This document shows positions 1-7,786 of a stretch of 7,786 nucleotides of DNA, one piece after another. A model generated the notes under the pieces. It was not told the origin of the DNA and made no database searches. It worked only from the letters and a program-made list of their open reading frames with translations. The translations under genes and the position numbers were made by a program. The DNA is taken from assembly GCA_947373775.1 (NCBI GenBank), contig CANBZE010000072.1, positions 1 through 7,786 on the forward strand. Direction: 5' to 3'. Every line of letters starts with the position of its first letter. Within the stretch, counting starts at the first letter, position 1. Origin of the DNA: Alphaproteobacteria bacterium. Lineage in GTDB: Bacteria > Pseudomonadota > Alphaproteobacteria > Micropepsales > Micropepsaceae.

Positions 1-358
1 CGCTGCCGCCATCGCGGCGCTGGACATCTTGGAGCGCGAACCCCATCGCCCCCGCCGCCTGCGCGAACGCGCTAAGTTCTTCCGCAAGGTCGCCCGCGAA
101 AACGGCCTGACCGTCGGCGGCGATGAAGACTCGCCCGTCGCCTCGCTGATCGTGGGCGACGACAAGCTGGCCATGGTGCTGTCGCACAACCTGCTGGAAC
201 GCGGCATCGAAGTGCAGCCGATCGTGCGTCCGGCGGTGTCGGCCACCACGGCGCGCCTGCGTTTCTTCCTGACGGCCAACCATACCGAGGAGCAGATCCA
301 GGAAACTGTTCCGGTCGTGGCGCAGGAACTGGAAAAGCTCCGCCGCAGCGCAAGCTGA
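1..358 (+). CDS. Alpha-oxoamine synthase (serine palmitoyltransferase / AONS-like), 3' end only
   Basis: This is the C-terminal 118 residues or so of a fold-type I PLP enzyme. The reading frame is open from base 2, so the true start lies upstream and the TTG at 29 is not a real start. The family condenses an amino acid with an acyl-CoA, releasing CO2; serine palmitoyltransferase makes 3-ketosphinganine this way, while BioF and KBL make other products. The visible part is the C-terminal small domain, with the block GIEVQPIVRPAV followed by ARLRFFLTANHTEEQI. The second Arg of ARLR (codon 260-262) aligns with E. coli BioF Arg361, a substrate-carboxylate ligand. The catalytic lysine would be upstream and cannot be seen. 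The stop lies 2 bases before the desaturase ATG, so the two genes are probably co-transcribed. The neighbouring DEGS-like gene favours serine palmitoyltransferase (spt), but the fragment alone cannot exclude an AONS-like or other oxoamine synthase. Confidence 0.85.
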   Translation, partial: AAAIAALDILEREPHRPRRLRERAKFFRKVARENGLTVGGDEDSPVASLIVGDDKLAMVLSHNLLERGIEVQPIVRPAVSATTARLRFFLTANHTEEQIQETVPVVAQELEKLRRSAS

Positions 359-360
359 GA

Positions 361-1317
361 ATGCCCCGCGCATTCTTCGTTTCCGCCCAGGACCAGCCGC
401 ATCCGGCGCGTACCCGCGCCATCCTGAAAGCCCATCCCGAAATCCGTGATCTGGTCGGCCGCAATCCCTGGACCGCAGCCATCATGCTGGGGGTCTGCAG
501 CCTGCAGGTCGCCCTGGCGGCGCTGATGGGCCGGCTTGGCCTGCATGCCTGGTGGGCGGCGCTGATCATGGCCTATGGCGTGGGCGCCTTCGCCAATCAC
601 TGCCTTTACGTTGTCATCCATGACGCTACCCACAAGCTGATTTTCAAGAACCGCACGGCGAACTATCTGGTCGCCATCATCGGCGATTTGCCCAACCTGA
701 TCCCCGGTGCCATCGGCTTTTCCATCTGCCATCTGGCGCACCACGCCAAGCAGGGCGACCATTCCGCCGATGCGGATCTGGCCGGCCATTGGGAAGCGAA
801 GCTGATCGGCAACCGCTGGTACGGCAAGGCGCTGTGGCTGCTGGCCTTCCCCCTGTTTCAGCTCACCCGTCCGGGCCGGTTGAAAGACGTGGCGTCGGTC
901 ATCAATGGCTGGAGCATCGCCAGCCTGACCGCCTGCGCCCTGTTCGACGTCGCCATCGTGCACCTGTTTGGCTGGAACGCGATTGTGTATCTCGCCGCCT
1001 CGATGCTGTTTTCCATCGGCCTGCACCCTTTGGGCAGCCGCTGGATCCAGGAGCATTTCACCCTGGACCCGGAGCAGGAAACCGGCAGCTATTACGGCAT
1101 GCTCAACCGCCTGGCGCTGAATGTCGGCTATCACAATGAGCATCACGACTTTCCGTCGGTGCCGTGGAACCGCCTTCCGGACATCCGCAAGATGGCGCCG
1201 GAATTCTATGACAGCCTGACACCGGCGGCATCCTGGTTCGGCCTGTGGCTGACCTTCATCACAAATCCCAGCTACTCGCTCTATTCGCGCGTCCTTCGGT
1301 CCGAACCGGGCAGGTAA
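361..1317 (+). CDS. DEGS-like sphingolipid delta-4 desaturase (membrane di-iron fatty acid desaturase superfamily)
   Basis: A 318-residue integral inner-membrane enzyme, close in length to human DEGS1 (323). From memory of that protein the match spans the full length. Residues 10-32 (DQPH..R..IL...PEI..L) match the N-terminal Lipid_DES segment. Three histidine boxes follow: HDATH at 87-91, HLAHH at 124-128 and HNEHH at 258-262. The last sits inside NVGYHNEHHDFP, which I recall as identical in DEGS. Accessory histidines are also kept: NH at 79-80, GLHP at 220-223 and EH at 231-232. Hydrophobic spans lie near 38-57, 62-86, 102-122, 156-168 and 180-224. The predicted reaction is O2-dependent introduction of a 4,5-trans double bond, or C4 hydroxylation as in DEGS2, on dihydroceramide. 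The ATG at 361 is chosen because a later Met would remove the N-terminal domain; no strong Shine-Dalgarno is visible, so coupling to the gene 2 bases upstream is likely. Activity on an ordinary fatty acid is the alternative. Confidence 0.88.
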   Translation: MPRAFFVSAQDQPHPARTRAILKAHPEIRDLVGRNPWTAAIMLGVCSLQVALAALMGRLGLHAWWAALIMAYGVGAFANHCLYVVIHDATHKLIFKNRTANYLVAIIGDLPNLIPGAIGFSICHLAHHAKQGDHSADADLAGHWEAKLIGNRWYGKALWLLAFPLFQLTRPGRLKDVASVINGWSIASLTACALFDVAIVHLFGWNAIVYLAASMLFSIGLHPLGSRWIQEHFTLDPEQETGSYYGMLNRLALNVGYHNEHHDFPSVPWNRLPDIRKMAPEFYDSLTPAASWFGLWLTFITNPSYSLYSRVLRSEPGR

Positions 1318-1321
1318 CGCC

Positions 1322-2464
1322 GTGGCCAATACACTGCGCATCGCACTTGTTACCAGCTCGTACAACTACATCGCCGATGGCGTGGCGCTGACCCTCAACC
1401 GGCTGGTCGGCTATCTGGAGCGCCAGGGCGTCGAAGTGCTGGTCTTCACCCCGACCGCTGAAAAACCTGCCTTCACCCATAACGGCACCATCGCGCCGGT
1501 GCCGTCCATGCCGCTGCCGGGCCGCCCGGAATATCGCTTCGTGCTGCGCATGCCGGGCAACGTGAAACGCCAGCTGCTGGATTTTGCGCCCGACATTATC
1601 CACATCGCGGTGCCGGACTTTCTGGGCCATGCCGCGCTGGACTTGGCGAAAGCGAACAGCATTCCCGCCGTGGCGACCTATCACACCCGCTATGAGACCT
1701 ATCTGCGCCACTATTGGTATCTGGCGCCGTTCGAGGGCCTCTTGACCAGAATTTTGCGCCGCTTCTATGGCGGCTGCCGCGAAGTCTATGTGCCATCGGA
1801 CTCCACCCGCGATGTGCTGCTGGCTGACGGACTGAAGAACAATTTCAAACCCTGGCCGCGCGGTATCGAGACCGACCGCTTCAACCCCGTCAAACGCAGT
1901 GCCACATGGCGCGCACAATTGGGGATCGGGGAAGATGAACTGGTGGTGCTGCATGTCTCGCGCCTGGTGCGGGAAAAGCGGCTGGACACACTGACAGCGG
2001 CGCTGAAGCAGGTGACTGTGCCGCATCGCGTGGTGATCGTGGGCGAAGGCCCGGATCGTCCCTTTGTCGAACGGGAATTGCCGCACGCCATCTTCACTGG
2101 CTTTGCCGTCGGCGAAGATCTGACGACGGCCTATGCTTCGTCCGATATTTTCTTCTTCCCCAGCGACAGCGAAAGCTTCGGCAACGTCACCCTGGAGGCC
2201 ATGGCGTCGGGCCTGCCATGCGTCTGCGCCGATGCCACCGGCAGCCGCTCGCTGGTGGTGGATGGGCAAACCGGCTTCCTGGCCCCGGCCGATGACGCGG
2301 CAAGCTTTGCCCGCCACATAACCGCCCTGGCGCAGGATAAAGCCTTGCGTGAACGTATGGGCCTCGCGGCGCGGGCCCGCGCCCTGACCTTTTCCTGGGA
2401 TGAGACTTTGGCCCGCATGCTGGGCTATTATCGCGCGCTGCTCGCCAGGACTGCTTCGCCGTGA
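1322..2464 (+). CDS. GT4 glycosyltransferase, SqdX/PimB/MgtA-like lipid glycosyltransferase
   Basis: A 380-residue soluble or peripheral GT-B enzyme. The N-terminal acceptor domain (about 1-190) carries blocks typical of GT4 enzymes that glycosylate lipids: NRLVGYLERQGVEVLVFTP at 26-44, VPSMPLPGRPEYR at 60-72, DIIHIAVPDFLG at 91-102, YHTRYETYL at 120-128 and WPRGIETDRFNP at 178-189. The C-terminal donor domain has Arg214 and Lys219 (SRLVREKRLD), GEGP at 241-244 and the EX7E motif Glu284-Glu292 (ESFGNVTLE). Family members use GDP-mannose or UDP-sugars such as UDP-sulfoquinovose; the donor here cannot be read from sequence. The GTG start at 1322 lies 4 bases after the desaturase stop, with a short AGG (1312-1314) as a plausible ribosome site. 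The placement next to a sphingolipid-type desaturase suggests that ceramide or a related lipid is the acceptor, which is an inference. Confidence 0.9.
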   Translation: MANTLRIALVTSSYNYIADGVALTLNRLVGYLERQGVEVLVFTPTAEKPAFTHNGTIAPVPSMPLPGRPEYRFVLRMPGNVKRQLLDFAPDIIHIAVPDFLGHAALDLAKANSIPAVATYHTRYETYLRHYWYLAPFEGLLTRILRRFYGGCREVYVPSDSTRDVLLADGLKNNFKPWPRGIETDRFNPVKRSATWRAQLGIGEDELVVLHVSRLVREKRLDTLTAALKQVTVPHRVVIVGEGPDRPFVERELPHAIFTGFAVGEDLTTAYASSDIFFFPSDSESFGNVTLEAMASGLPCVCADATGSRSLVVDGQTGFLAPADDAASFARHITALAQDKALRERMGLAARARALTFSWDETLARMLGYYRALLARTASP

Positions 2465-3633
2465 AAATAGTAGACGTTTGCGAATTCTATTCGCCCACCG
2501 GCGGGGGCGTGCGGCGCTATATCAACCAGAAGCTGGCACTGGCGGCCAGGTTCGGCCATGAGCTGACCATCATTGCGCCCGGCGCCTATACGCGCACCGA
2601 ACAGGCGCATGGCGGCACCATCGCCTGGATCAAGAGTCCGCACCTGCCCTTCGACCGCAACTACCGCATGTTCTGGAATCACCAGCAGGTGTGGCGCACC
2701 CTGGACAGGCTGGCGCCCGACCTGGTGGAAGGCTCATCGCCCTGGCGCGGCGGCTGGCTGGCGGCGCGCTGGCCCGGCAAGGCGGTGAAAGTGTTTTTCA
2801 TGCATGCCGATCCGGTGGCGGTCTATCCGCAGACCTTCCTGGGCGGCCTGCTGGGCCCAGAACGCGTGGACCGACTGTTCGGCTTCTTCTGGCGTTATCT
2901 CAACCGGCTGAACAGCAACTATGACGCCGCCATCGTCACCAATCCGGCGCTCAAGGAACGGTTTTCCGGTTTCGGGCTGGAGAATATCCAGGTCGCGCCC
3001 TTCGGCGTGGAACGCAGCAAGTTTTCGTCCGACTTTTACGACGCCACCGCGCGGCGCGAGATGCTCGCGACCTGCGGTCTGGATGCCGACGCCAAGCTGC
3101 TGATCGCGGTGGGCCGCCATCATCCCGAAAAGCGCCTTCGCACCATCATCCAAGCGGTCAGCAAGGCGCAGAAGCAGCGCAAGATCGGACTGTACATCGC
3201 TGGCGACGGCTTCCTGCGCGCCTCGGTGGAGCGCTGGGCGCTGAACGCCCAGAATGTCTACGTCGCCGGCCAGATCAACGATGCCGACCAGCTGGCCACG
3301 GTGATGGCGTCGGCCGACGCGCTGATCCACGGCTCGGCGGCGGAAACCTTCGGTCTGGTGCTGGCGGAAGCCTTGTGTTCGGGCACGCCGCTGATCATTC
3401 CCGATGCCGGGGCTTCGGCTACCTTCGCGGGGCCGGGTTATGCCGAGACCTATCGCACCGGCGATGCGGATGATGCGGCGGGCGCCATCCTGAGGCTTTT
3501 GGCCGGTGACCGTGCCGAGCAGGGCCGCGCCGCGTTGGCGGCGGCCGACGCCCAGGTCTTCAATGTCGAACAGCATTTCGAGCGGCTGTTCGAGATCTAT
3601 GGCCGGATCGTGGCGGAACGCTCCACGCGGTAA
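2461..3633 (+). CDS. GT4 glycosyltransferase
   Basis: A 390-residue GT-B fold retaining glycosyltransferase. The N-terminus begins MKIVDVCEFYSPTGGGVRRY, with the glycine loop GGG at 14-16 that closes over the donor site in this fold. The C-terminal donor domain shows Arg219 and Lys224 (GRHHPEKRL), GDG at 248-250 and the EX7E motif Glu295-Glu303 (ETFGLVLAE), followed by ALCSGTPLI. No membrane span or signal peptide is evident, so it should act on the cytoplasmic face. The GTG start overlaps the previous gene's TGA in a GTGA arrangement (2461-2464), with AGGA at 2447-2450 upstream, so translation is probably coupled to the first GT4. It most likely adds a second sugar to the lipid headgroup begun by its neighbour; donor and acceptor are unknown. 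The last 37 bases overlap the 3' end of the convergent GT22 gene. Confidence 0.9.
   Translation: MKIVDVCEFYSPTGGGVRRYINQKLALAARFGHELTIIAPGAYTRTEQAHGGTIAWIKSPHLPFDRNYRMFWNHQQVWRTLDRLAPDLVEGSSPWRGGWLAARWPGKAVKVFFMHADPVAVYPQTFLGGLLGPERVDRLFGFFWRYLNRLNSNYDAAIVTNPALKERFSGFGLENIQVAPFGVERSKFSSDFYDATARREMLATCGLDADAKLLIAVGRHHPEKRLRTIIQAVSKAQKQRKIGLYIAGDGFLRASVERWALNAQNVYVAGQINDADQLATVMASADALIHGSAAETFGLVLAEALCSGTPLIIPDAGASATFAGPGYAETYRTGDADDAAGAILRLLAGDRAEQGRAALAAADAQVFNVEQHFERLFEIYGRIVAERSTR
3597..3633. other. Convergent 3' overlap between the two operons
   Basis: The TAA of the + strand GT4 gene (3631-3633) and the TAG of the - strand GT22 gene (reverse complement of CTA at 3597-3599) cross over, so 37 bases encode the C-terminus of both proteins. 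There is no free space for a conventional intergenic terminator between the operons. A 5-bp inverted repeat (CACGC at 3624-3628, GCGTG at 3635-3639) lies here but lacks a U-tract on either strand. Confidence 0.85.
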
Positions 3634-5093
3634 AGCGTGTACCAGTAAAGCGGCAGCAATTTCAGGAAATGGTGGCGGGCGGCGAAAGCCGTGTAGCCCT
3701 GTATGTAATCCGCCCCCGCCTGACCGTAACCGAAGCGGGCCAGCGGAAATTCCGAATAGAGCAAAGTGGCGTTGGTTCCTTGCGGCGGGACCGGTGTTTG
3801 CGTCATCAGGTAGACCGGACCCTTGGCCAGCAGCGCATCCAGCTGGGCCGTGTCCTTCAGCTTGCCGATGATAAAGCCGGCGGGACGAAACACGGGATAG
3901 GAATCGAAGGGCTTCTCAAAGCTCACGACAGGGCCGGGATCGTGGCGATAAAGATAGCGCGCCATGGGCATGTGCGGGCGCACGCCAAAGGGATAAAGCG
4001 CGAAATAGAGCATGGCCAGCACCGAGAGCGCGATGACGGCCTTGGCCGCCCAGGATGTGCGCCAATTCCAGATGCGGGCGAATATCCCGCGCCAGCGCGG
4101 CAGGCACGGCGAAAAGCCCAGCACGGGGAACGAGACGGCCAGGATCGCCATCGGAAACAAAAACCGCGCTTCCTTGTGTGCGATGACGACATGCGCCAGC
4201 ACGAAGGGCAAACTCACCCAGCTCACGACATGGCGGGAATTGCGCAGCCACATCGCCACCATCCCTGCCATCAGAACCAGTGTGATGGCGAAGAAGATCT
4301 GCGCCGGCAGCAGGTATAGATAGGCGAAGACGGGTTCACGCCCGAACTGGTGCGCCGCCACGCCCTGCACCAGGTTGACGTCGACATAGCCCAGCGGCGG
4401 AAACGCCCAGGCGCCATAACCCCAATGGTCCGCCAGCGCGCCAATCGCCAGCGCCGCGACGCCGCCGCCCAGGAACGCCCCCAGCGACGCAACCCTTTCG
4501 CGCGCGACAGCGGCCAGCCAGGCAAACAGGCCCAATCCCAGCAGGCCCGTCTGGTAACGGGATTCAAACGCCAAGCCGCAGAGCAGCCCGGCCAGCGCCA
4601 GCCGCGACAGCGTGCGCCGCTCGAGCGCCACGGCCAGGCCCAGCGCGAAGAAGGCCGCCGAGAAAGTCTCCGATGACGTGCGCACGAACAGGTAGGGCAG
4701 GAACCCGAACAGCGGCAGAGTGCGGACGAAGGCGCGCTTTTCGTCTGCGCCTTCGATGGTGGGCAACAGGGCGCGGACGAACAGGGCCAGCGCGGTCAGC
4801 GAGAACAGTCCTGTCAGCAGCCGCAGGATGAAGGCGATGGTGAACATGTCCGTCACGCCCAGCCCGATCAGTGGCCGGGCGATCAGGAAATAGATGCCGG
4901 GCTGGAACCAGGGCCGGATGCGGGCGCCGAATTCCCACGGCAGACTGGACGCCGGGGTGATGCCCAGCTTGAAGGACATGAATTCCAGCACCTGGTAATG
5001 CTCGTCCGGGAAATAGAAGGTGACGCTGAACCAGGCGGTGACCAGGGTCACCACCGCCAGGATCATCAGGCTGCGGCGCAATTCCCTATCCAT
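3597..5093 (-). CDS. GT22-family integral membrane mannosyltransferase (PIG-B/ALG9-like)
   Basis: A 498-residue polytopic GT-C protein. Evidence for GT22 is the acidic first-loop motif FPDEHYQVLE (about residues 28-37; Asp30-Glu31, bases 5001-5006), the WEF..RIRPW segment at 53-62, and HKEARFLFP at 306-314 (bases 4152-4178), a hallmark of the family. There are many hydrophobic spans, for example 8-27, 64-84, 88-110, 124-138, 143-156, 183-197, 203-221, 258-282, 291-305, 311-328 and 351-368, followed by a C-terminal soluble part of about 130 residues. GT22 enzymes transfer mannose from a polyprenyl-phosphate carrier (dolichol-P-mannose in eukaryotes) to glycolipids on the non-cytoplasmic face; GPI and N-glycan precursors are the known eukaryotic acceptors. 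The start is set at ATG 5093, which overlaps the upstream GT4 end by 8 bases. ATG at 5102 is possible, while an ATG at 5192 would add an Arg/Pro-rich, non-membrane extension inside the upstream gene. Donor and acceptor are inferred. Confidence 0.82.
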   Translation of the reverse strand: MDRELRRSLMILAVVTLVTAWFSVTFYFPDEHYQVLEFMSFKLGITPASSLPWEFGARIRPWFQPGIYFLIARPLIGLGVTDMFTIAFILRLLTGLFSLTALALFVRALLPTIEGADEKRAFVRTLPLFGFLPYLFVRTSSETFSAAFFALGLAVALERRTLSRLALAGLLCGLAFESRYQTGLLGLGLFAWLAAVARERVASLGAFLGGGVAALAIGALADHWGYGAWAFPPLGYVDVNLVQGVAAHQFGREPVFAYLYLLPAQIFFAITLVLMAGMVAMWLRNSRHVVSWVSLPFVLAHVVIAHKEARFLFPMAILAVSFPVLGFSPCLPRWRGIFARIWNWRTSWAAKAVIALSVLAMLYFALYPFGVRPHMPMARYLYRHDPGPVVSFEKPFDSYPVFRPAGFIIGKLKDTAQLDALLAKGPVYLMTQTPVPPQGTNATLLYSEFPLARFGYGQAGADYIQGYTAFAARHHFLKLLPLYWYTLYRVERSATIRP

Positions 5094-6129
5094 GAAGAGC
5101 ATCGAACCAGTCCAGATAGGCGCGGGCGCGGGTGCGCGGTTCAAACGGCGCGGCAAGCGCCCGCAAGTCTTCCGGCCGGCGCGGCCAGGCACATGTGGCG
5201 ATCAGCGCCGCGGCAAGATCGCCGGGGTCACGCGACGGCACGATCCGGCCCGCTTCGGGTGCGGCGATGATGTCGTGCAGCAGGAAGGAACAATCGGTGC
5301 TGACCACCGGTACGCCTTGCGCCAGGGCCTCCACCGCCACGGCCGGCCCGCCTTCATAGCGCGAGGTGATCAGCAGCGCGTCCGCATCGGCCAGGTAAGG
5401 CTCGATTTGTGGCACATAACCGGCGAGCGTGACTTTGTCTTTCAGGTCTTCGGCCTTGTGCCGGACATCCGCCATCAGGGCGCCGTCCCCCAGCATGGTG
5501 AGATGGCCGTCGAAGGTCCGCATTACGTCCAGCGCCAGCCCCGGATCCTTTTGCGGCTCCATCCGCCCGATCCAGAGGATGTTGCGGGCGGGCGGATGTG
5601 TGCGTGCGGAAGCAGGACCGATATAGACCGGGTCGTGAAGGGTGACTACCGGGCGTCCGGGCAACAGGGTCTCAAGCTCGCGCGCCAGGCCGCCGTTCAT
5701 GGCGGCAAAGCCGGTCACGCCACGCGTGATGAAGCGAAAGATCGCCTTGGCGAAAGGCGCGTCCGGCACAGGCGGATTGGAAATCTTCAGTGCGATGGGT
5801 GCGCCGGTGCCACGTCGCAGGTCGTTCGCCAGCAGGGCATGGAAGTTTCCAGGCAGGAAGATCACGTCCGGCTTCAATGCCGCCAACCGCTTTGCCATGT
5901 CGCGGCCCAGTTTCCAGCGCGACAGAAATCCGCGCCGTATCGGCGGATCAAGCGCCACCACCGTCACGCGGCTGTCTACTATCTCGCGCAATCCGCCCTC
6001 GGTGCTGCCGCACAGGATGGTGACCTCGCGTCCCTCGTCGGCCCAGGCCGCGCCCAAGCCGATGGCGATGCGCTCGGTGCCGCCGCGCGAAAAATCATGC
6101 AGGCAGATCAGGATGCGCTTGGCGCTCAT
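5086..6129 (-). CDS. GT4 glycosyltransferase
   Basis: A 347-residue GT-B fold enzyme without membrane spans. The N-terminal motif SRGGTER at 14-20 is the glycine-rich donor-site loop. The C-terminal domain has Arg189 and Lys194 (IGRMEPQKD), GDG at 214-216, the YEGGPAVAVE segment with the EX7E pair Glu259-Glu267, and GVPVVSTDC at 272-280. This set marks a retaining GT4 enzyme of the kind common in glycolipid, O-antigen and capsule clusters. The ATG start overlaps the upstream gene's TGA in an ATGA (6126-6129), so translational coupling is likely; no strong Shine-Dalgarno is visible. It lies between two GT-C membrane glycosyltransferases, which suggests that it builds a cytoplasmic intermediate later extended on the periplasmic side. 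Donor sugar and acceptor cannot be read from the sequence. Confidence 0.9.
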   Translation of the reverse strand: MSAKRILICLHDFSRGGTERIAIGLGAAWADEGREVTILCGSTEGGLREIVDSRVTVVALDPPIRRGFLSRWKLGRDMAKRLAALKPDVIFLPGNFHALLANDLRRGTGAPIALKISNPPVPDAPFAKAIFRFITRGVTGFAAMNGGLARELETLLPGRPVVTLHDPVYIGPASARTHPPARNILWIGRMEPQKDPGLALDVMRTFDGHLTMLGDGALMADVRHKAEDLKDKVTLAGYVPQIEPYLADADALLITSRYEGGPAVAVEALAQGVPVVSTDCSFLLHDIIAAPEAGRIVPSRDPGDLAAALIATCAWPRRPEDLRALAAPFEPRTRARAYLDWFDALHG

Positions 6130-7786
6130 TGCGCGCGCTCGAAAATCCAGACCGGCTCGTTCAGGCTGTCATGGATATGAACGGCGGGCCAGAACCGGCC
6201 CGGCGATGCCACATGCACCAGCCGGTATGGCAGCTTTTCACCTACCAGCTGCGTGAAATACATGTGCGCGTCGCTGTTGCGGAAATCCAGTTCCTGCATC
6301 CAGGAATAGCGATGACCCGGCGGCAGTGGACTGGCGGGCCGCAGATAGCGCCGCGCCCAGGCGGTGCTGAGCACCACATAGCGCGCGCCGCGCGGCGCGA
6401 TGAAGGCGCCCCGCACTTCGCGCACGCCCGGCAGGGGATTGCGCAGCTTCAGATCACCCTGCCCCACACGCGTCACAGCCGCGTCCTTGGGAAAGCGCGG
6501 CAGGAAGCAGTTCTGGCCATAGGTCTCGATGGAGTCGCCGGGGCGGACATGCGCGACCATCCAGCTTTCGGCGTCATAACGCGGATCGAACAGCATGGCG
6601 GCGTTGATGGCGATGGCCTGGTGCAGCGCCAGCAAGGCCGTCACCGCGACCACACCCTGTGCCGTTCGCCGCAACCAGGGCCGGGCATGGCCGATCATCT
6701 CCACCGCGATGCCGATATAGACGCAGGCCAGCACGGCTTGCGGCAACAGGAAACGGTCATCGCTGCGCAGGGCGGCGAAGTTGAAGCAGACCGTAAAGGA
6801 GATGATGGCCAGCAGGGGCAGAAACCCTGCCACATTGCGCCGCGCACCTGTCAACCACACGCCAATGCCGGTCAGCCCTAGCGCGGCAAGTCCGTAACCA
6901 TGCGCGTAAGTGCGCATCATGTCGCCCAGCAGCGCCGTCCAACCCGCAGGCCCATGCCAATATTCCGCATAGCTCTGGCTGGCGGGACCGGCGAGAAAGC
7001 CAAGGCGTTTCACAAAGCCGCCGGGATTGGTGATGGCGCCGTCCAGCAACAACACCGCAATCAGCGCAACCACTGCCGCCGGCAGCAAAGTCAGCGCGAT
7101 CTTCCGCGCATTGGCGCGGGTCCATTCGTCCACCGCAAAACAAAAGATCAGGAACAGCGGCAGACTCAGCAAGAACAGGGCATAGGCCTGGTCCTTGGTC
7201 GCGACTGCGGCGGCGGCGAACAACGCCGCGCCCCACCAGCGCCGCACCTGTTGTTCGATCACCGCGCGCATGCACCACAGCAGCGACAGCAGTCCCCAGA
7301 ACAGGTAGGGCACGTCCAGATTGCCGACCTGGCCATAATAGGTGAGCCCGAAATTCAGCGTGCAGGCGGCGGCGGCGAAAAGTCCCGCCCGCTTTCCCGC
7401 CACCAGCCGCGCCATCTCGTGCACGATACCGATGATGCCCAGCGACAGGACCAGGCTAACCAGCCGCCCTGTCACCGCGAACCAGGTCATGTGCTCCGGC
7501 TTGATGAATTCGCCGATCACGTCGGGCTGGCGCAGCGACGGTGCGTGCAGCAGCGCGATCACGATGCTGGGAAAATTCAGGATCGCCAGCCAGATCGCGT
7601 GCAGCGGCGGATAGGTGAAATAGGAACCGGGCTTCCAGGTCAGCGCCAGCGCCGTGAGAAAGTTGCGCGGCGTAAAGCCGTCATCGTCCCAGCCGTCCGA
7701 CGCGGGCAGCCCCCAGGACAACCCGGCCAGGCGCAAACCCGCCGCCACCAGCAGGATCCAGAACAGCGGATTGCGCAGCCAGCCTC
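6126..7786 (-). CDS. GT39/PMT-type integral membrane glycosyltransferase, 5' end outside the window
   Basis: A 553-residue C-terminal portion of a polytopic GT-C protein. The frame stays open to the right edge and the codons beyond 7748 (WLRNPLFWILLV) complete a first membrane helix, so the GTG at 7748 is not the start. After helix 1 (about to fragment residue 27) comes a loop with the acidic motif GWDDDGFTP (three Asp, bases 7680-7688), then YFTYPPLH, both typical of PMT/ArnT-like enzymes that use polyprenyl-phosphate sugars. VGNLDVPYLFW and ATKDQAYALF further on also fit the PMT_2 fold. About ten more hydrophobic spans follow, then a soluble C-terminal domain of about 150 residues. The likely role is transfer of a sugar to a lipid-linked glycan, or less likely a protein, in the periplasm. 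The stop overlaps the downstream GT4 start by 4 bases. The substrate is not determinable. Confidence 0.82.
   Translation of the reverse strand, partial: GWLRNPLFWILLVAAGLRLAGLSWGLPASDGWDDDGFTPRNFLTALALTWKPGSYFTYPPLHAIWLAILNFPSIVIALLHAPSLRQPDVIGEFIKPEHMTWFAVTGRLVSLVLSLGIIGIVHEMARLVAGKRAGLFAAAACTLNFGLTYYGQVGNLDVPYLFWGLLSLLWCMRAVIEQQVRRWWGAALFAAAAVATKDQAYALFLLSLPLFLIFCFAVDEWTRANARKIALTLLPAAVVALIAVLLLDGAITNPGGFVKRLGFLAGPASQSYAEYWHGPAGWTALLGDMMRTYAHGYGLAALGLTGIGVWLTGARRNVAGFLPLLAIISFTVCFNFAALRSDDRFLLPQAVLACVYIGIAVEMIGHARPWLRRTAQGVVAVTALLALHQAIAINAAMLFDPRYDAESWMVAHVRPGDSIETYGQNCFLPRFPKDAAVTRVGQGDLKLRNPLPGVREVRGAFIAPRGARYVVLSTAWARRYLRPASPLPPGHRYSWMQELDFRNSDAHMYFTQLVGEKLPYRLVHVASPGRFWPAVHIHDSLNEPVWIFERAQ

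What the first reader, a model, noticed from the sequence alone, without database searches (positions are those of the whole stretch)
361..1317. Bacterial homologue of the eukaryotic dihydroceramide delta-4 desaturase (DEGS)
Seen in sequence: all three histidine boxes (HDATH, HLAHH, HNEHH), the exact NVGYHNEHHDFP block, GLHP and EH accessory residues, and the N-terminal DQPH...PEI segment that in eukaryotes defines the Lipid_DES domain. The length also matches. Established: DEGS enzymes introduce the 4,5-double bond of sphingosine or hydroxylate C4. Bacterial sphingolipids are usually described with saturated dihydro-sphingoid bases, so a bacterial enzyme of this type would imply true sphingosine-type or phytosphingosine-type lipids. 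I do not know of a characterised bacterial example, but I could not search.
Basis: partly seen in the sequence, partly recalled or inferred. Interest (0 to 1): 0.78.

Follow-up and report, generated by a model that had tools for sequence, protein, structure and literature searches.

The report
Bacterial ceramide-type desaturase in sphingolipid operon
A bacterium carries a close relative of the enzyme that makes sphingosine lipids in animals and plants, packed in one operon with what looks like the first enzyme of sphingolipid synthesis and two sugar-adding enzymes, which suggests that some bacteria make eukaryote-like unsaturated (or 4-hydroxylated) ceramides.

Summary
ORF 361-1317(+), 318 aa, matches Pfam Lipid_DES (7e-11) and FA_desaturase (2.5e-26), both above cut-off, with three intact His boxes. 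It scores 167-214 bits (33-37% identity, near full length) against 12 of 12 eukaryotic DEGS proteins, but at most 25 phmmer bits against six other FA-desaturases from relatives' genomes: it belongs to the DEGS/Lipid_DES family. It is no isolated oddity: one genome scan confirmed 531 related stretches (capped), in Pseudomonadota, Verrucomicrobiota, Bacteroidota and Ignavibacteriota, including named Methylocapsa, Methylocella and Beijerinckia strains. The gene sits 2 bp after an alpha-oxoamine synthase (serine palmitoyltransferase-like) and 4 bp before two GT4 glycosyltransferases. Such a synthase lies nearby in 38 of 80 loci (about 1.6 expected); Verrucomicrobial clusters add a relative of yeast ceramide hydroxylase Scs7. 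Best reading: a bacterial ceramide/sphingoid C4 desaturase (or C4 hydroxylase). Substrate and product are inferred; of nine neighbouring synthases scanned, one passes a curated SPT cut-off. My searches listed no printed bacterial example, and a review says bacteria make dihydroceramide, but the library was limited and JGI already labels many homologues automatically. Named strains make it directly testable by lipidomics.

The parts
2..358 (+). C-terminal 118 aa of an alpha-oxoamine synthase (SPT/KBL/BioF family), cut by the window start; serine palmitoyltransferase-like by context
   Evidence: Pfam Aminotran_1_2 6.8e-7; NCBIfam best SerpalmtaseCFB 2.4e-19, far under cut-off, partial gene. The window aligns to L002 at 79% over 7.9 kb, where the gene is complete; best PDB match of the full-length relatives in L003 and L004 is Sphingobacterium SPT
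361..1317 (+). DEGS-family desaturase (DES), 318 aa
382..471 (+). Lipid_DES N-terminal domain (residues 8-37, DQPH...PEI)
   Evidence: PF08557 41.8 bits, cut-off 23
619..633 (+). His box 1, HDATH (residues 87-91)
   Evidence: sequence
730..744 (+). His box 2, HLAHH (residues 124-128)
   Evidence: sequence
1132..1146 (+). His box 3, HNEHH (residues 258-262) in NVGYHNEHHDFP
   Evidence: sequence
1322..2464 (+). GT4 glycosyltransferase 1, candidate (glyco)ceramide sugar transferase; 4 bp after DES
   Evidence: Glycos_transf_1 5.1e-34; NCBIfam best GlcN_PG_synth 4.1e-48, under cut-off; same order in L001-L004
2461..3633 (+). GT4 glycosyltransferase 2, start overlaps the end of GT4-1 by 4 bp
   Evidence: Glycos_transf_1 1.4e-20; NCBIfam best GlcN_PG_synth 2e-54, under cut-off
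3597..5093 (-). GT22 (Alg9-like) membrane mannosyltransferase family; start set at the internal Met by comparison with L002; convergent with the operon, membership in the pathway uncertain
   Evidence: PF03901 8.8e-27; L002 homologue starts MDRDLRRSL
5086..6129 (-). third GT4 glycosyltransferase, opposite strand; membership in the pathway uncertain
   Evidence: Glyco_trans_1_4 4.9e-23
6126..7784 (-). PMT_2-like membrane glycosyltransferase, runs off the window end; membership in the pathway uncertain
   Evidence: PF13231 1.5e-6

Best explanation
The gene encodes a bacterial member of the DEGS/Lipid_DES family: a di-iron, O2-dependent membrane desaturase that acts at C4 of the sphingoid base of (keto)dihydroceramide or dihydroceramide. 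The upstream alpha-oxoamine synthase would condense serine with an acyl thioester; an SDR and a GNAT acyltransferase, which lie about 1 kb beyond the part matching the window in two of its nearest relatives, would reduce and N-acylate the product; DES would introduce the 4,5 double bond (or a C4 hydroxyl); and the two GT4 enzymes would glycosylate the ceramide. Shown: family, His boxes, compact gene order, conservation of the neighbourhood. Inferred: substrate, regiochemistry, metal centre, order of steps, glycosylation.
For: Lipid_DES and FA_desaturase above cut-off. 167-214 bits to 12 of 12 eukaryotic DEGS against at most 25 phmmer bits to six other FA-desaturases from relatives' genomes. 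Gaps of 2, 4 and -4 bp between synthase, DES, GT4 and GT4. The window is syntenic with L002 and L004 over its length; both add SDR(-)/GNAT(+) next door. A synthase is near DES in 38 of 80 loci, about 1.6 expected under my assumption of 4 such genes per 3 Mb. In L034 the linked synthase passes the curated SPT cut-off (681 against 640). An FA_hydroxylase neighbour occurs in 24 of 80 loci; the one compared with PDB (L036) matches only Scs7, ceramide fatty acid hydroxylase, 6e-33. In G001-G003 the cluster synthase is distinct from BioF-like and ALAS-type genes of the same genomes.
Against: The window-type synthases (L002-L004) stay under every NCBIfam cut-off and score higher to bioF (341-356) than to any SPT model, so SPT is inferred. 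No synthase was found in the stretch held in 42 of 80 loci: 22 of 23 Bacteroidota, 11 of 11 Ignavibacteriota, 4 of 21 Pseudomonadota, 4 of 23 Verrucomicrobiota, the 1 Dadabacteria; only 6 of these 42 stretches are under 10 kb. DES has no sequence match in PDB at E<=0.01 and no Foldseek hit at E<=0.001. No lipid data for any carrier were found. Nine sites invariant in the 12 eukaryotic rows differ consistently in bacteria, so the substrate could differ.
Confidence: 0.72

Rival explanations
1. Same family and pathway, but the enzyme is mainly a C4-hydroxylase (DEGS2-like), making phytosphingosine-type (4-hydroxy) ceramide rather than sphingosine-type. (This is a sub-case of the best explanation, not exclusive of it.)
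For: The JGI label for some relatives is '4-desaturase/C4-monooxygenase'; the eukaryotic family holds both activities (recalled). Nine diagnostic differences from the animal and plant rows.
Against: No sequence feature tested here separates the two activities; the 12 eukaryotic comparators are named DES1 or DES1-like, or carry other names that say nothing of activity.
Confidence: 0.25
2. It desaturates or hydroxylates a different alpha-oxoamine-synthase lipid (sulfonolipid, deoxy-type or another amino-acid-derived lipid), not a serine-based ceramide.
For: The window-type synthase is under all SPT cut-offs and of unproved amino-acid specificity; cysteate acyltransferase is also in its match list (28eh).
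Against: Best PDB match is SPT; the L034 synthase passes the SPT cut-off; the FA_hydroxylase neighbour of L036 matches ceramide hydroxylase Scs7.
Confidence: 0.13
3. It is an ordinary acyl-lipid or fatty-acid desaturase that happens to keep DEGS-like motifs.
For: It is the only FA_desaturase-family match in two methanotroph genomes, G011 and G012, so it could serve a general role there.
Against: At most 25 phmmer bits to six other FA-desaturases against 167-214 to DEGS; Lipid_DES domain; linkage to synthase, SDR, GNAT and FA_hydroxylase genes.
Confidence: 0.08
4. Eukaryotic contamination of an assembly.
Against: Intronless, packed between bacterial genes, GC 0.63 against 0.63-0.67 for its neighbours; gene order conserved in four related loci; relatives sit on contigs of over a megabase (L005, L073) and in named strains.
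Confidence: 0.01

Closest known systems
Eukaryotic sphingolipid delta-4 desaturase / C4-monooxygenase (DEGS1, DEGS2, plant DES; Pfam Lipid_DES PF08557)
   Same: Lipid_DES domain, three His boxes, 52 shared near-invariant residues, length
   Different: 33-37% identity; nine consistent diagnostic substitutions; bacterial operon with synthase and glycosyltransferases; activity untested
Canonical bacterial sphingolipid operon of Caulobacter (spt, acpR, cerR, aasR, cerS; PMC11324152, passages seen)
   Same: Alphaproteobacterial cluster built round an alpha-oxoamine synthase with reductase and acyltransferase candidates
   Different: The word desaturase occurs there once, for CC_0202; the window-type synthases score 225-232 against the alphaproteobacterial SPT model, cut-off 670; the acyltransferase candidate is Acetyltransf_1
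Caulobacter CC_0202, DesA-family desaturase/hydroxylase credited with hydroxylating the N-acyl chain of sphingolipids (as cited in PMC11324152, passage)
   Same: Desaturase/hydroxylase said to act on bacterial sphingolipids
   Different: Acts on the fatty acyl chain by that report; I did not compare its sequence. PF08557 was found in none of the 14 control genomes, a set that includes Caulobacter vibrioides (named)
Eukaryote-like DES of four Bacteroidota-phylum genomes (L128-L131)
   Same: Bacterial genomes with a DEGS protein
   Different: 43-51% identical to four animal and plant DES, on the eukaryotic side of a long branch; no hit to my reference synthase, GNAT, FA_hydroxylase, SDR or CDP-alcohol transferase proteins in the 11-14 kb held

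Membership tests
DEGS / Lipid_DES family | N-terminal Lipid_DES domain over curated cut-off | tested here: met
   41.8 bits, cut-off 23
DEGS / Lipid_DES family | FA_desaturase domain with three His boxes (HXXXH, HXXHH, HXXHH) | tested here: met
   boxes present in 81 of 81 bacterial sequences, window included
DEGS / Lipid_DES family | Closer to eukaryotic DEGS than to other FA-desaturases | tested here: met
   167-214 bits to 12 of 12 DEGS; of six valid other FA-desaturases three reach 17-25 phmmer bits and three were not reported by phmmer; BLAST bits 22-49 for the six
DEGS / Lipid_DES family | Position in a rooted tree relative to eukaryotic DEGS | tested here: inconclusive
   Outgroup rows too remote to root and not one clade; without them eukaryotes are one side of a branch (100/100) and the window groups with L003 and L004
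DEGS / Lipid_DES family | Desaturation or hydroxylation at C4 of dihydroceramide | not testable with these tools
   needs enzyme assay or lipidomics
Bacterial sphingolipid biosynthetic cluster | Linked alpha-oxoamine synthase | tested here: met
   2-358 (+), 2 bp upstream; 38 of 80 related loci
Bacterial sphingolipid biosynthetic cluster | That synthase is a curated serine palmitoyltransferase | tested here: inconclusive
   Nine cluster synthases were scanned (eight, one); one, L034, passes the SPT cut-off (681 against 640), eight do not; the window's own is partial
Bacterial sphingolipid biosynthetic cluster | Host contains sphingolipids | not testable with these tools
   Window host unnamed. 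One paper search for Methylocella with sphingolipid listed 5 papers; I looked into one of them (PMC7179689)
Ordinary bacterial fatty-acid / acyl-lipid desaturase | Matches a curated bacterial desaturase model over cut-off | tested here: not met
   Best NCBIfam 36 bits to CrtW (cut-off 350), DesA 20 bits (cut-off 500)

The most novel reading that the evidence does not exclude
Several bacterial phyla, including Verrucomicrobiota and methanotroph-rich Beijerinckiaceae, make true ceramides (4E-sphingosine or 4-hydroxysphinganine backbone, in Verrucomicrobiota probably also 2-hydroxylated on the N-acyl chain, in the window's group glycosylated by GT4 enzymes) from dedicated operons, and the DEGS step of eukaryotes shares its origin with this bacterial pathway rather than being a eukaryotic invention.
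Probability: 0.35. Interest if true: 0.82.

Novelty: new variant of a known kind. Interest (0 to 1): 0.62.

Why it matters
A review states that bacteria produce dihydroceramide as distinct from the ceramide of eukaryotes (PMC10191378, passages), and a 2020 taxonomy of Alphaproteobacteria treats sphingolipids as apparently restricted to Sphingomonadales (PMC7179689, passages). A DEGS enzyme in an SPT-like operon in other Alphaproteobacteria and in Verrucomicrobiota would go against both. It would weaken any use of 4-unsaturated sphingoid bases as eukaryotic markers in environmental lipidomes, and would bear on where the eukaryotic ceramide pathway came from. Named strains carry the gene, so the question is open to direct test.

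Tried and rejected
Eukaryotic contamination: rejected on operon structure, GC and conserved bacterial neighbourhood. Ordinary FA-desaturase: rejected on scores. Plasmid or phage gene: no match in either collection. Rooting the DES tree with other FA-desaturases failed: very long branches and an outgroup that was not one clade. Of 11 non-DES matches I tried eight; L097 gave no ORF under my filter and L092 (529 aa taken, against an open frame of 334 aa) was a wrong reading frame, so six are valid comparators. L092 is still in the tree and the score list; I base nothing on it. Classifying the synthase by the lysine motif failed: GT[FL]SK occurs in 37 of 38 cluster synthases (the 38th is a fragment) but also in the BioF-type rows L114 and L117. 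NCBIfam on the window-type synthase was indecisive. FemAB_like PF04339, which I recalled as the family of Caulobacter ceramide synthase, was found in 9 of 12 carrier genomes, each time on another contig or far from DES, so says little. DES has no PDB sequence match at E<=0.01. Foldseek: no PDB hit at E<=0.001; AlkB 8f6t was third at E 0.23; the two viral hits at E<=0.001 are Yasminevirus proteins at 13-16% identity. The Acidobacteria locus L024 has a synthase almost identical to a Verrucomicrobial one (branch 0.019 each) and is probably mis-binned, so I do not claim Acidobacteriota. Paper searches were swamped by a general term and are weak.

Full report
Observation. The ORF at 361-1317 (+) is 318 aa with an ATG start. 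Pfam gives FA_desaturase at 2.5e-26 and Lipid_DES (PF08557) at 7.3e-11, both above the curated cut-offs. The NCBIfam matches are far below their cut-offs (four listed; CrtW 36 bits against 350, DesA 20 against 500), so no curated model there claims it.

Relation to eukaryotic DEGS. Against 12 animal and plant DES proteins chosen from the 120 listed, the window protein scores 167-214 bits by phmmer and is 33-37% identical over 309-318 aligned positions, in 12 of 12 cases. Six other FA_desaturase proteins from relatives' genomes reach at most 25.3 phmmer bits (three of them are not reported by phmmer) and 22-49 BLAST bits (a seventh row, L092, was a wrong frame and is not counted). In an alignment of 81 bacterial and 12 eukaryotic sequences, 52 positions are shared by at least 95% of the bacterial and all eukaryotic rows, including every His-box histidine; nine positions differ consistently between the two groups. 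All 81 bacterial sequences, window included, have one H[DE]XXH and two separated HXXHH boxes. AlphaFold2 gives a fairly confident model (mean pLDDT 82, pTM 0.84); no PDB sequence match, no PDB fold hit at E<=0.001 and a weak one to alkane monooxygenase AlkB (E 0.23), so structure adds little.

Distribution. A search of 5.8 billion proteins gave 4687 matches at E<=0.001 among the 8000 candidates scored; of the 120 listed, 109 carry both Pfam domains, counted by eye. By NCBI title these are 21 Pseudomonadota, 23 Verrucomicrobiota, 23 Bacteroidota, 11 Ignavibacteriota, 1 Dadabacteria (listed under Thermodesulfobacteriota) and 1 Acidobacteriota, the last probably mis-binned. Five come from named strains: Methylocapsa aurea KYG, M. 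palsarum NE2, M. acidiphila B2, Methylocella silvestris TVC, Beijerinckia sp. L45; a sixth, Rhizobiales bacterium dw_265 (L004), is also not titled as a MAG. By PF08557 the gene is patchy: 1 of 289 genomes in the class of G001 (the centre itself), 9 of 96 in its order, 36 of 149 in the family of M. aurea, 16 of 147 in the order of a Verrucomicrobial carrier, 30 of 296 in the phylum of a Bacteroidota carrier and 17 of 148 in a second, overlapping draw centred on an Ignavibacteriota carrier. It was found in 0 of 14 control genomes in each of these searches. No plasmid or phage record matched.

Neighbourhood in the window. DES starts 2 bp after the stop of a gene whose C-terminal 118 aa belong to the alpha-oxoamine synthase family, and is followed after 4 bp by a GT4 glycosyltransferase gene, which overlaps a second GT4 gene by 4 bp. 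On the opposite strand lie GT22, GT4 and PMT_2-like genes. The window aligns to L002 (79% over 7.9 kb) and L004 (75% over 7.9 kb) along nearly its whole length, to L001 (84% over 4.2 kb) and to L003 (76% over 6.4 kb and a second piece). L001-L004 keep the order synthase, DES, GT4, GT4. In L002 and L004, about 1 kb beyond the part matching the window, lies a divergent pair of an SDR and a GNAT acyltransferase gene (the L002 pair scanned). Upstream of the synthase in L002 lie an ABC ATPase and two LptF/LptG permease genes on the other strand.

Neighbourhood across phyla. I clustered neighbouring ORFs of the 80 loci and the window. A synthase lies within the stretch held in 38 of 80: 17 of 21 Pseudomonadota, 19 of 23 Verrucomicrobiota, 1 of 1 Acidobacteriota, 1 of 23 Bacteroidota, 0 of 11 Ignavibacteriota and 0 of 1 Dadabacteria. 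About 1.6 would be expected if a genome held 4 such genes per 3 Mb, which is my assumption; the loci are not independent. Of the 42 loci without one, 6 hold under 10 kb, among them the four Verrucomicrobial ones; the rest hold 10.9-21 kb, though some end close to the gene. The GNAT family occurs in 32, SDR in 25, an FA_hydroxylase in 24 and a CDP-alcohol phosphatidyltransferase in 17 of 80. Verrucomicrobial order is usually DES, FA_hydroxylase, synthase, CDP-alcohol transferase, GNAT; Beijerinckiaceae have synthase, GNAT, DES. The FA_hydroxylase of L036 matches only yeast Scs7 in PDB, the ceramide very-long-chain fatty acid hydroxylase, at 6e-33 (two entries). One Ignavibacteriota genome (G010), where nothing is linked, holds on other contigs two synthases that score 502-527 against the CFB SPT model, cut-off 640.

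Is the synthase an SPT? Not settled. The best PDB match of the L003 and L004 synthases is the Sphingobacterium SPT, ahead of KBL and BioF. Genomes G001-G003 have separate BioF-like genes (325, 321 and 315 bits, under the bioF cut-off too) and ALAS-type genes (the G003 one passes its cut-off; those of G001 and G002 are placed with it by the tree), and the cluster synthases fall apart from both in a quick tree with long branches. But the window-type synthases score 341-356 to bioF, 316-321 to CFB SPT and 225-232 to alphaproteobacterial SPT, all below cut-off. Of nine cluster synthases scanned, only that of the Saprospiraceae locus L034, in a DES, FA_hydroxylase, synthase, GNAT cluster, passes the SPT cut-off (681 against 640). 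The published Nostoc case shows that similarity to a known SPT can mislead (PMC8895605, passages and two sections).

Phylogeny. In a 60-row tree (48 bacterial rows thinned at 82% identity, 12 eukaryotic) the window groups with L003 and L004 (100/99) and the eukaryotes are one side of a branch (100/100). The root is not resolved: the outgroup rows are too remote and include one bad row. Adding ten sequences with high Lipid_DES scores from Bacteroidota-phylum genomes showed a second bacterial type: four (L128-L131) fall on the eukaryotic side of a branch 2.2 long and are 43-51% identical to four animal and plant DES; the other six do not. So bacteria hold at least two DES types, and the direction of transfer between bacteria and eukaryotes is open. 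My eukaryotic sample lacks fungi and protists.

Mechanism. Best reading: the synthase makes a 3-keto base, the SDR and GNAT finish dihydroceramide, DES uses a di-iron centre and O2 (known for the superfamily; recalled) to act at C4, and GT4 enzymes add sugars; in Verrucomicrobiota an Scs7-like enzyme would hydroxylate the N-acyl chain. Only gene content, motifs and order are shown; every enzymatic step is inferred. Desaturation and C4 hydroxylation cannot be told apart from sequence here.

Literature. [quoted passage not shown] A 2020 taxonomy says sphingolipids appear restricted to Sphingomonadales within Alphaproteobacteria (PMC7179689, passages); the Caulobacter work shows that this is too narrow (PMC11324152, passages). 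On the other side, a review cites a 1975 report of 'sphingosine bases and ceramide' in Bacteroides (PMC10626005, passages), and Black Sea lipidomics reports bacterial sphingolipids that vary in unsaturation, in anoxic water (PMC11334938, passages), so unsaturated bacterial sphingolipids as such may not be new. The passages that I saw of PMC11765627, PMC9278070, PMC11087976 and PMC12619533, and of those above, name no bacterial delta-4 desaturase; of PMC11765627 I saw 12 of 29 places. My ten searches listed no paper on one by title; the library holds open-licence papers only, the Nat Chem Biol 2022 ceramide paper was not held, and I read no paper whole. The automatic label 'sphingolipid delta-4 desaturase' already sits on many JGI homologues, so the annotation is not new; the cluster evidence and the testable claim are what this adds.

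Verdict. Family membership is firm; a sphingolipid C4-modifying role is likely (0.72); sphingosine rather than phytosphingosine is undecided. I rate it a new variant of a known kind, interest 0.62.

Noticed in passing
L128:6820-7767(+), L129:6110-7213(-), L130:5134-6120(+), L131:5082-6068(+): A second, eukaryote-like DES type in four Bacteroidota-phylum genomes, 43-51% identical to four animal and plant DES, with no hit to my reference sphingolipid proteins in the 11-14 kb held; L128 lies on a 3.7 Mb contig. Possible transfer between eukaryotes and bacteria.
   Followed up: partly
L002:3941-7190 (-): Two LptF/LptG permease genes and an ABC ATPase gene lie divergently upstream of the synthase-DES operon in the window's relative; they could export the lipid or its glycan to the outer membrane. 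Similar reading frames are seen in L003 and L004.
   Followed up: partly
L115:116-1501(-) and L118:1-1347(+): Methylocapsa aurea (G011) and Methylocella silvestris (G012) genomes hold a second alpha-oxoamine synthase, 44-46% identical to the L003 cluster synthase and apart from BioF- and ALAS-type rows in the tree, of unknown role.
   Followed up: no
L024:11035-15242: Locus titled Acidobacteria gp1 has a synthase almost identical to a Verrucomicrobial one (branches 0.019); probably a mis-binned contig.
   Followed up: partly
L018:5785-6720(+) and L012:15137-16315(+): CDP-alcohol phosphatidyltransferase genes in Verrucomicrobial DES clusters, candidates for a phospho-head-group step on ceramide.
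   Followed up: no
window 3597-3633: The ends of the GT4-2 gene (+) and the GT22 gene (-) overlap by 37 bp tail to tail.
   Followed up: no
upstream of DES in L019, L020, L022, L023, L025, L035, L036, L038: A gene whose one scanned member (L035:945-2405) matches the MMPL transporter family precedes DES in these 8 loci by the clustering.
   Followed up: no
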